Source of the DNA: Vibrio sp.
GTDB taxonomy: Bacteria > Pseudomonadota > Gammaproteobacteria > Enterobacterales > Vibrionaceae
Direction of reading: 5' to 3'
Assembly: GCA_028131545.1 (NCBI GenBank)
Contig: JAOICL010000001.1
Location: forward strand, 116,901 to 180,900
DNA: 64,000 nt
Numbering within the stretch: the stretch's first letter is position 1; each line of letters opens with the position of its first letter. Below are positions 3,474 through 46,680 of this stretch, piece after piece. Made by a program: the position numbers and the translations under genes. The notes beneath the pieces are model-generated. The model had not been told where the DNA came from, searched no databases, and was given only the letters and a program-made list of their open reading frames with translations.

Positions 3474-4979
3474 ATGTCCTCTAAAGTTCCCTTTTACCTA
3501 TCTGTCCTACTTTTAATTGTTATCGGGACAGGTTTAACGATCCAAAAACACTATGACTACGGTGTTCCATTTACGCCTGGTGAAACCAGGCAGGTATGGG
3601 ATGTTGAAGCTCGTGTTGAATTTGAAGCTAAAGGGGAACCTGCAAGTATTTCTTTAGCCTCACCCAGTACGCAATCAGGTTTTACACTGGTCGATGAATC
3701 AGCTTCATCGCCTGGTTATGGTATTTCCTATGTCGGTACTGGTGAACAACGCCGTACGGAATGGTCGATTCGCACAGCAACAGGTCCGCAAACTCTTTAC
3801 TATAAAACGCGTTTTCTCGTGGATCCTAATGCTAAATCGACTCCAGTCCCACCCAATGACGAAATTTACCCACCAACTTTTGCTGGCCCAGTTGAAGCCG
3901 CTGTCAATGATATTATCGACAGTGCAAACAAGACCTCATCGGACAATCATTCATTCGCTCGTGAACTGATCAAGATACTAAATGACCCTGATAGTCAAAA
4001 CGCTGCACTTATCCTGGATAAAATGGAACCAGTCAATGCTGTTGACCAAATGCTGGCTTATTCTGGTATTCATGCGAAAATTGTTGGTGTTATTAAATTA
4101 GAAGATGGACGCCGTCGCCGTGCGATCTCTAAAATGAACCAAGTATGGAATGGCGATCAGTGGGTTCTATTTAACCCTAAAAATGTTCGCCAACAATTTG
4201 AAGATAATCTACTGGTTTGGGATGAATCGAATATTTCATTACTGGATGTGGTTGGCGGTAATAACAGCCAAGTCACGTTTTCAATGATTGTTCAAGAAGT
4301 GTCTCCCCAGCAAGCTTCTAATAGCAAAGCAGAAGCGGATCAACTGTTAAACTTCTCTATTCATAGCCTGCCTCTTGAAGAGCAAGCCATGTTTAAAACC
4401 ATCATGTTGGTTCCAATCGGTGCGTTTATTGTTGTATTCCTACGTATTTTAATTGGTTTAAAAACTTCTGGTACCTTCATGCCAGTACTGATTGCTTTAT
4501 CGTTCGTGCAAACTCAACTGGTTACCGGTATTGTTGGTTTCCTATTAATTGTCGGCACAGGCTTAGTGATTCGTAGTTATTTATCCAAACTGAATTTGCT
4601 TTTAGTCGCCCGAATATCGGCCGTTATTATCGCCGTTGTTATGATTATTGCCCTCTTTACCGTCGTCGCATTTAAAGTGGGTTTAACTGAAGGTCTCTCT
4701 ATTACTCTATTCCCTATGATTATCCTATCTTGGACAATCGAGCGTATGTCGATTCTATGGGAAGAAGAAGGTGCTAAAGAAGTATTCTTACAAGGTGGTG
4801 GTTCACTATTAACCTCTGTCTTAGTTTACCTTGCAATGACCAATACCTATATTCAACACTTAACATTTAACTTTATCGGTATCCAGCTGGTTATCTTAGC
4901 TGTAATTTTATTACTTGGTACATATACAGGTTACCGCCTAACAGAATTACGCCGCTTTAAACCACTAGCGGAGGATTAA
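3474..4979 (+). CDS. inactive transglutaminase fused to 7 transmembrane helices
   Basis: N-terminal TM, transglutaminase-like periplasmic region, C-terminal multi-TM block (FKTIMLVPIGAFIVVFLRILIGLKTSGTFMPVLIALSF). Confidence 0.85.
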   Translation: MSSKVPFYLSVLLLIVIGTGLTIQKHYDYGVPFTPGETRQVWDVEARVEFEAKGEPASISLASPSTQSGFTLVDESASSPGYGISYVGTGEQRRTEWSIRTATGPQTLYYKTRFLVDPNAKSTPVPPNDEIYPPTFAGPVEAAVNDIIDSANKTSSDNHSFARELIKILNDPDSQNAALILDKMEPVNAVDQMLAYSGIHAKIVGVIKLEDGRRRRAISKMNQVWNGDQWVLFNPKNVRQQFEDNLLVWDESNISLLDVVGGNNSQVTFSMIVQEVSPQQASNSKAEADQLLNFSIHSLPLEEQAMFKTIMLVPIGAFIVVFLRILIGLKTSGTFMPVLIALSFVQTQLVTGIVGFLLIVGTGLVIRSYLSKLNLLLVARISAVIIAVVMIIALFTVVAFKVGLTEGLSITLFPMIILSWTIERMSILWEEEGAKEVFLQGGGSLLTSVLVYLAMTNTYIQHLTFNFIGIQLVILAVILLLGTYTGYRLTELRRFKPLAED

Positions 4980-45130: not shown

Positions 45131-45498
45131 GAAAACTCCAATGTTAACAATTCAAAAAACTATAAAAATAAATAACTACAAATCGACACGACAAAAAGCA
45201 TCTCATGGCATATTAAAACGGAAAAGCCATAACGTATGAAATTAACGATGCTTAATAACTTAAATATAAGTATGTGTTATCACTATGAAAACAGCAATGG
45301 AAATCACTATATAGTCTATGATTTTGTCGTTATTCACTCTAAGCATGTCAGTGAACGGTCAGTTCGTCATGTTTTTGCTATGTTTAGAGGAACTGCTATA
45401 CATATTGTGTGTCTAGTAAGAGAATAGCAAAACAATGACAAAGCCATGTACTCCTTTATTCTTCCCTTTTTATTGATCGCATGGCATAAGGATATAAT

Positions 45499-46680
45499 AT
45501 GACGTTTCACGTTGGGATCATTGATAATGATCCAATTCGGTTAATCACTCCACTGCTTGATAGCCGAACTCAAAGTGGGCACATTCTCTTTATTGGAGAT
45601 GAGACTCAACACACCTTATACCACCGCCTAGCAAAGGTCTTATCTAGCCGAGATATCACTTCTGAGTACTTTGAGATACCATCTGATTCAACAACAACCG
45701 GTCTAAAAAACGCCGTTAATCAATTAGCGATTGACCTTTGCAACCGAGGTGAAGAAGTTCAACTTAATGCAAGTTGCGGCGTAAGACACCGATTACTCAC
45801 TGTATATGAAATATTTCGTAGTCAAGAGTGGCCTATTTTCGTTGTAGAAGCGAATAGTGACAAGCTGTGCTGGCTTTACCCTAACGATGCTCCCGATCAT
45901 CAAGTTCAAGATAATATAACGATTAATGATTACCTCACCATTTTTGGCGCGCGAGGTGAGTTTAATCAAGTTGAATTACCCCCTATTTTAGATAAACAAC
46001 TATATGACCTAGGTCAACGCTGGGCGAGTAATGCATTAGAGTTAGGCCCTGGCTTAGCAACATTGAATTACCTCGCGACGACCTGTCGTAAAGAACAACG
46101 CCTAGATGTCGAGTTATCAGAAAAGCAGCAAGGTTACCGTGAATTAAATATGCTTCTGACAGATTTAGTCGACATTGGTATCGCCAAATATGATAATGGC
46201 ATTCTTACCTTTGCAAATGAAGAAGCCCGTCGATTTTCTAACGGTGAATGGCTCGAAACATTAGTACACAGTACTGTTCGACAAATTCAACAAGATTTAC
46301 CAACCATTCAGGATCGCTCACTTAACGTACAAGTGTATCGTAATATTGGCGAGAAAGAAGTTCGTAATGAGTTAGATGTTGCTACTGTCGTTAATAATAA
46401 ATTGCATATTATAGAATGTAAGACAAAGGGCATGCGTGATGATGGGGACGATACTTTATATAAACTGGAATCCCTTCGTGATTTGCTCGGTGGCCTACAA
46501 GCACGTGCAATGTTAGTGAGCTTTCGCCCACTACGCCATAATGATATTACTCGAGCTGCTGACCTTGGACTTGCGATTATCGGTCCAGATGAATTAAAAG
46601 ATCTGAAGTCTTACCTGACTATATGGTTTAAAGAGGCCGGTGGTGAAGAATCTACGCTTGATGATAATCTAGCGTGTTAA
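45499..46680 (+). CDS. DUF1887 family, Card1/Can2-like CARF + PD-(D/E)xK nuclease-fold protein
   Basis: N-terminal Rossmann/CARF-like LNASCGVRHRLLTVYEIFRSQEWPIFVVE; C-terminal NELDVATVVNNKLHIIECKTKG PD-(D/E)xK motif. Confidence 0.85.
   Translation: MTFHVGIIDNDPIRLITPLLDSRTQSGHILFIGDETQHTLYHRLAKVLSSRDITSEYFEIPSDSTTTGLKNAVNQLAIDLCNRGEEVQLNASCGVRHRLLTVYEIFRSQEWPIFVVEANSDKLCWLYPNDAPDHQVQDNITINDYLTIFGARGEFNQVELPPILDKQLYDLGQRWASNALELGPGLATLNYLATTCRKEQRLDVELSEKQQGYRELNMLLTDLVDIGIAKYDNGILTFANEEARRFSNGEWLETLVHSTVRQIQQDLPTIQDRSLNVQVYRNIGEKEVRNELDVATVVNNKLHIIECKTKGMRDDGDDTLYKLESLRDLLGGLQARAMLVSFRPLRHNDITRAADLGLAIIGPDELKDLKSYLTIWFKEAGGEESTLDDNLAC

What the first reader, a model, noticed from the sequence alone, without database searches (positions are those of the whole stretch)
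45499..46680. Orphan Card1/Can2-like (DUF1887) CARF-nuclease with no CRISPR locus nearby
Directly visible: an N-terminal Rossmann/CARF-like half and a C-terminal PD-(D/E)xK core, E291-L-D293 ... E306-C-K308 (nt ~46369-46422). Established knowledge: DUF1887 proteins include V. cholerae VC1899 (structure known) and the type III CRISPR ancillary nucleases Card1/Can2, which are activated by cyclic tetra-adenylate. Here the gene is monocistronic between hinT and fadR, with no cas genes or repeats in the window. Inference: a chromosomally fixed, CRISPR-independent nucleotide-sensing nuclease whose ligand and role in a Vibrionaceae host are unclear; it could act in stress or anti-phage defence.
Basis: partly seen in the sequence, partly recalled or inferred. 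Interest (0 to 1): 0.75.

Follow-up and report, generated by a model that had tools for sequence, protein, structure and literature searches.

The report
Conserved Vibrio orphan CARF nuclease (VC1899)
This gene is the local copy of V. cholerae VC1899, a nuclease related to CRISPR-associated enzymes; nearly every Vibrionaceae species sampled keeps it at a non-CRISPR site with intact catalytic residues and an altered, invariant signal-binding pocket, so it looks like a working host enzyme with an unknown trigger, not a CRISPR relic.

Summary
It is the ortholog of VC1899 (PDB 1XMX; phmmer 3e-203; AF2 model TM 0.94-0.98). Its orphan status and altered pocket are already published: Zhu et al. 2021 (PMC7969007) found no DNase activity, only weak cA4-independent RNase, and suggested a degenerate relic.

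What I add argues against degeneration. The gene is in 148 of 151 Vibrionaceae genomes, mostly beside fadR or udp. Only 10 of the 151 have type III RAMP genes, always on another contig. Median dN/dS is about 0.017. The four catalytic residues and pocket residues D9, D11, R14, S92, G94, R96, H97, E117 and D121 are identical in 136 of 136 distinct orthologs. CRISPR-linked relatives mostly carry S9/Q11/TGGTK instead.

Best reading: a host-domesticated, ligand-gated nuclease whose ligand is not cA4. Ligand and role are inferred, not shown. The gene is a new member of a known kind.

The parts
45499..46680 (+). VC1899-family orphan CARF-nuclease gene, 393 aa (coordinates include the stop codon)
   Evidence: AF2 model pLDDT 89.2, best PDB match 1XMX, then Can2 7BDV
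45499..45942 (+). N-terminal CARF (Rossmann) domain, about residues 1-148, with the altered pocket D9-x-D11-P12-x-R14 (45523-45540), N90-A-S-C-G-V-R96-H97 (45766-45789), E117, D121
   Evidence: pocket residues identical in 136/136 distinct Vibrionaceae orthologs, except A91 (134), C93 (135) and V95 (usually L); contrast with CRISPR-linked relatives
45943..46212 (+). Middle region, about residues 149-238 (linker plus helices), highly conserved in Vibrionaceae
   Evidence: 44% of columns at least 98% identical; helices in the model
46213..46638 (+). C-terminal PD-(D/E)xK nuclease domain, about residues 239-380; catalytic E291, D293, E306, K308
   Evidence: PF09002 7.6e-62; catalytic residues 136/136; median dN/dS 0.007
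45443..45485 (+). Inverted repeat GCCATG (45443-45448) / CATGGC (45480-45485) around a 31-nt pyrimidine-rich loop, just before the ribosome-binding site AAGGA (45488-45492); candidate 5' UTR hairpin or operator
   Evidence: many orthologs have complementary arms at this place, with different arm sequences between lineages; tentative: the window copy alone does not fold better than shuffles, z -0.84

Best explanation
The gene encodes the Vibrionaceae VC1899 ortholog: a CARF sensor fused to a PD-(D/E)xK nuclease, probably dimeric. Most likely an ancestral Can2-type effector left type III CRISPR before or early in the family's history, and its pocket was rebuilt: acidic D9, D11 and E117 replaced S9, Q11 and H117, R14 replaced P14, and S-C-G-L-R-H replaced T-G-G-T-K-x. 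It was then fixed as a host gene. The inferred mechanism is that a host-made small molecule other than cA4, most likely nucleotide-derived, binds across the CARF dimer and brings the two nuclease domains together to cut RNA and/or nick DNA during stress or infection. Shown here: orthology, fold, intact catalytic residues, invariant altered pocket, strong purifying selection, independence from type III loci. Published: no cA4 activation in vitro. Inferred: dimer gating in this protein, ligand class, substrate and role.
For: Near-universal: 148/151 Vibrionaceae genomes against 11 of about 359 other genomes of the order, those at 38% identity or less. Context conserved: at least one of fadR, udp, hinT or mcp beside it in 146 of 155 orthologs. 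Purifying selection: dN/dS median 0.017, CARF 0.025, nuclease 0.007 over 109 pairs. As conserved as its neighbours: window-to-Vibrio median identity 78%, against 72% FadR and 79% HinT. Catalytic and pocket residues invariant in 136/136; pocket sites more conserved than random CARF sites (p about 0.01). RAMPs in 10/151 genomes, CD-NTase (SMODS) hits in 16/151, mCpol not detected in this assembly, so type III and SMODS enzymes cannot be the general ligand source. CRISPR-linked relatives mostly keep S-x-Q and TGGTK. Vibrionaceae proteins form one clade, 100/100. No relative in phage records.
Against: No ligand or robust activity is known for VC1899: in vitro it had no DNase and very little RNase activity (PMC7969007), which a degenerate or purely binding protein would also give. 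Two members of the wider clade with acidic pocket residues (L182, L207) lie beside type III genes, so an acidic pocket does not by itself exclude a cyclic oligoadenylate. The published assays on VC1899 that I could read used cA4 only. The ligand class rests on CARF precedent alone.
Confidence: 0.6

Rival explanations
1. [quoted passage not shown] 2021).
For: Published lack of DNase and very weak, cA4-independent RNase activity, and loss of the cA4-contact residues (PMC7969007).
Against: A gene without function would not stay in 148/151 genomes with dN/dS about 0.017 and all catalytic and pocket residues unchanged in 136 orthologs.
Confidence: 0.06
2. Innate anti-phage effector: a core Vibrionaceae defence nuclease activated by a phage-induced nucleotide signal from a host enzyme.
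For: All characterised relatives are defence effectors; PADLOC CARF-PDDEXK models match at 1e-138; one distant relative lies beside genes that look defence-related (L060; not tested).
Against: Defence genes are usually patchy, mobile and fast-evolving; this one is near-universal, mostly at two sites, and as conserved as housekeeping neighbours. Known signal makers are patchy.
Confidence: 0.25
3. Facultative partner of type III systems: kept as a ready-made effector that responds to a cyclic oligoadenylate other than cA4 when a type III locus is acquired, as in this assembly.
For: The assembly has a type III-D-like locus; all 10 genomes with RAMPs also have VC1899; only cA4 is reported as tested.
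Against: 138 of 148 genomes with the gene have no RAMP gene, too few for such strict conservation; in at least 3 of the 10 the type III contig carries its own CARF nuclease.
Confidence: 0.07

Closest known systems
V. cholerae VC1899 (PDB 1XMX), founding DUF1887/CARF structure
   Same: Ortholog: 382 residues aligned without gaps, same catalytic residues, same altered pocket, same fadR-side locus in V. cholerae
   Different: A few pocket-side positions (N10 for Q10, V95 for L95, A118 for P118); an mcp gene lies between hinT and VC1899 in V. cholerae but not here
Can2 (S. thermosulfidooxidans, PDB 7BDV) and T. sulfidiphilus Can2
   Same: CARF plus PD-(D/E)xK fold, TM 0.77-0.85; E-x-D ... E-x-K core
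   Different: Can2 binds cA4 through S/T/K/Y contacts and is type III-linked; in VC1899 these positions are D9, D34, R96, V115 (PMC7969007)
Card1 (T. succinifaciens, PDB 6WXX/6XL1)
   Same: Domain architecture and catalytic core
   Different: About 20% identity; NITGGTK pocket; type III-linked (own knowledge)
CARF-PDDEXK nuclease of this assembly's own type III-D-like locus (contig C43:10406-11689)
   Same: Same architecture, same assembly
   Different: Canonical NATGGTK pocket, beside cas genes; too divergent to be found by BLAST with the orphan

Membership tests
DUF1887 / CARF-PD-(D/E)xK nuclease family (VC1899/Can2/Card1) | N-terminal CARF Rossmann domain plus C-terminal PD-(D/E)xK domain of the Card1 type | tested here: met
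   PF09002 7.6e-62, PADLOC CARF4 model over residues 1-378, fold match to 1XMX and 7BDV. The CARF half scores below the Pfam PF23400 cut-off.
DUF1887 / CARF-PD-(D/E)xK nuclease family (VC1899/Can2/Card1) | Intact catalytic residues (E-x-D ... E-x-K) | tested here: met
   E291, D293, E306, K308 in 136/136 orthologs
VC1899 ortholog group | Full-length high identity, monophyly with Vibrionaceae copies, shared locus | tested here: met
   77% identity to 1XMX, clade support 100/100, shared fadR/hinT context with V. cholerae
Can2/Card1, type III CRISPR ancillary effectors | Encoded in or beside a type III locus | tested here: not met
   No array in the window; the assembly's RAMP/Cas10 hits are all on another contig; in the 10 RAMP-positive genomes the ortholog is on a different contig
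Can2/Card1, type III CRISPR ancillary effectors | cA4-binding pocket residues (TGGTK and strand-1 S/Q) | tested here: not met
   SCGVRH, D9, D11, E117 instead; agrees with PMC7969007
Can2/Card1, type III CRISPR ancillary effectors | cA4-stimulated DNA nicking / RNase activity | not testable with these tools
   Published for the ortholog VC1899: not met (PMC7969007)

The most novel reading that the evidence does not exclude
Vibrionaceae as a family run a host signalling pathway of their own, in which an unidentified, non-cA4 and probably nucleotide-type molecule activates a domesticated CRISPR-type CARF nuclease through a rebuilt acidic pocket (DxDPxR ... SCGLRH ... E): a CARF signalling axis that works without CRISPR.
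Probability: 0.45. Interest if true: 0.8.

Novelty: new member of a known kind. Interest (0 to 1): 0.5.

Why it matters
CARF domains are known mainly as receivers of CRISPR-made cyclic oligoadenylates. A CARF nuclease that a bacterial family including V. cholerae keeps almost without exception, with an invariant but rebuilt pocket, suggests an unknown second messenger and a nuclease response outside CRISPR. It also changes the published view of VC1899 from degenerate relic to conserved enzyme, and names the residues for a direct test: what VC1899 binds has been an open question since its structure was released in 2004.

Tried and rejected
Degenerate pseudogene-like relic: rejected on dN/dS and invariance. 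Effector of the assembly's own type III locus: rejected as the general explanation. Phage or plasmid origin today: no phage hit; one weak Aeromonas plasmid hit, 28.5% over half the protein. CBASS/Panoptes-type signal maker as general source: SMODS in 16/151 genomes; mCpol only looked for in this incomplete assembly, not found. Known operators upstream (LexA, CRP, Fur, FNR, ArcA, PurR): no conserved match. Known RNA family in the 5' UTR: none; the only match is far below its gathering score. PF22335 as a Cas10 marker: unreliable in this family, since it gives weak hits in 120/151 genomes and rings in E. coli, probably through GGDEF cyclases, so RAMP PF03787 was used. Checking whether contig C43 truly belongs to this organism was inconclusive: GC 0.407 against 0.391, tetranucleotide r 0.83 against 0.93 within the window, and two flanking genes only about 50% identical to genus relatives. 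A look for VC1899 in the published Vibrionaceae core-genome paper (PMC3464603) found no mention in the main text.

Full report
Observation. The ORF at 45499-46680 (+) encodes 393 aa. Pfam finds the Card1 endonuclease domain at 7.6e-62 and only a sub-threshold Card1 CARF domain. PADLOC CARF-PDDEXK models match the whole length. The closest solved protein is V. cholerae VC1899, 1XMX, at 3.4e-203 without gaps over 382 residues; Can2 and Card1 follow at 1e-26 and 1e-6. An AF2 model (mean pLDDT 89.2) matches 1XMX at TM 0.94/0.98 and cA4-bound Can2 at 0.77/0.85. The window has no CRISPR-like array.

What was known. VC1899 is the founding DUF1887 structure. Zhu et al. 2021 (PMC7969007) noted that it is an orphan, found no DNase and very little RNase activity that cA4 did not regulate, showed that the cA4-contact residues are not conserved, and suggested a degenerate enzyme 'cast adrift' from CRISPR. 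Makarova et al. 2014 (PMC4012209) noted that each CARF family has genes not linked to CRISPR-Cas. So orphan status and altered pocket are not new.

Distribution. 148 of 151 Vibrionaceae genomes have the gene. Of the three without it, two are small genomes (2.1 and 2.6 Mb) and one is a 210-contig draft. Elsewhere in the order, 11 of about 359 genomes have a relative, at 38% identity or less; in the class sample 19 of 322 others, at 43% or less, with partial matches included. At least one of fadR, udp, hinT or mcp lies beside the gene in 146 of 155 sampled orthologs; V. cholerae (L125) has the hinT-mcp-VC1899-fadR arrangement. It is not a mobile-element gene in the records searched.

Not degenerate. 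Across 136 distinct orthologs the four catalytic residues are invariant, and so are D9, D11, P12, R14, N90, S92, G94, R96, H97, V115, E117 and D121. Nine CARF pocket positions listed in the Can2 paper are more conserved than random sets of CARF positions (mean 0.93 against 0.76, p about 0.01). Pairwise dN/dS (109 pairs with dS 0.15-1.0, not independent) has a median of 0.017, and 0.007 in the nuclease domain. Identity to other Vibrio (78% median) is as high as for HinT (79%) and higher than for FadR (72%) next door. This is the main new evidence, and it contradicts the relic view.

Relation to CRISPR. RAMP genes, a marker of type III systems, occur in 10 of 151 Vibrionaceae genomes, all of which also have VC1899, on other contigs. 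Of 22 full-length relatives outside the ortholog group, 14 lie within about 12 kb of RAMP genes; against 0 of 148 this gives Fisher p 3e-15, which ignores relatedness. Whether C43 was binned correctly is uncertain (the assembly is 73% complete). Either way it does not explain a gene that 138 RAMP-free genomes also keep.

Pocket switch. In an alignment of 42 proteins, nearly all CRISPR-linked members carry S/G9-x-Q11 and N-x-[TSN]-G-G-[TA]-K; the Vibrionaceae members carry D9-x-D11-P-x-R14, NASCG-x-R-H (K at 97 in the divergent L039) and E117 (D in L039). The Vibrionaceae form one clade (100/100). The wider clade with acidic pocket residues (96/87) holds mostly orphans but also two type III-linked members (L182, L207), so the pocket change does not map perfectly onto loss of CRISPR linkage. 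Some branches are long and their placement is unsure.

Mechanism. By analogy with Can1/Can2/Card1, ligand binding across the CARF dimer should bring the nuclease domains together. The ligand is unlikely to be cA4 and must be available in nearly all Vibrionaceae; SMODS-type CD-NTases (16/151) and type III systems (10/151) are too patchy. Ligand identity, substrate and role are inference.

Side finding. Many orthologs have an inverted repeat with a pyrimidine-rich loop just before the ribosome-binding site. Arm sequences differ between lineages but stay complementary: GGCTTGC/GCAAGCC in most Vibrio, GCCATG/CATGGC here, GATTACACAT/ATGTGTAATC and CTGATACC/GGTATCAG elsewhere. Among 129 distinct upstream regions 40% pass the threshold against 3% of shuffles; upstream regions of hinT, fadR and lpoB do not show it, but dsbB (77%) and cog3014 (25%) do. 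After thinning to 20 divergent representatives, 6 pass against a mean of 1.0 and a maximum of 5 in 200 shuffles. Two Vibrio copies fold better than shuffles; the window copy does not. It is a lead, not a result.

Verdict. The gene is an ordinary ortholog of a known protein, but that protein is more interesting than the literature suggests.

Noticed in passing
window 45443-45485: Inverted repeat with a pyrimidine-rich loop before the ribosome-binding site, with complementary but different arms in other lineages; candidate 5' UTR hairpin or operator.
   Followed up: partly
L052 and L053 (contig C43 of the same assembly, bases 1-40000): A type III-D-like CRISPR locus with two arrays (72-73 nt period), Cas1/Cas2/Cas6/Cas10/Csx10, two Csm6/NE0113-type proteins, a CARF nuclease, and a Zorya-like MotB-type gene close by (ZorB model 4e-16).
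   Followed up: partly
L052 6611-9364: 917-aa TPR-containing protein near the C43 type III locus, with a 38% identical frame at 4036; possible unrecognised effector.
   Followed up: no
L061 6163-7329 and L062 6235-7422: VC1899-like orphan nucleases beside a murA-like gene in two genomes of another family without RAMP genes; may be a second domesticated lineage.
   Followed up: partly
L064 6821-7957: A second, 36% identical VC1899-like copy on the second contig of a Vibrionaceae genome (G015) that has no RAMP gene.
   Followed up: partly
L060 4749-13622: Orphan VC1899-like gene next to a conjugation coupling-protein-like gene and two large proteins that look like defence genes; judged from the sequences only.
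   Followed up: no
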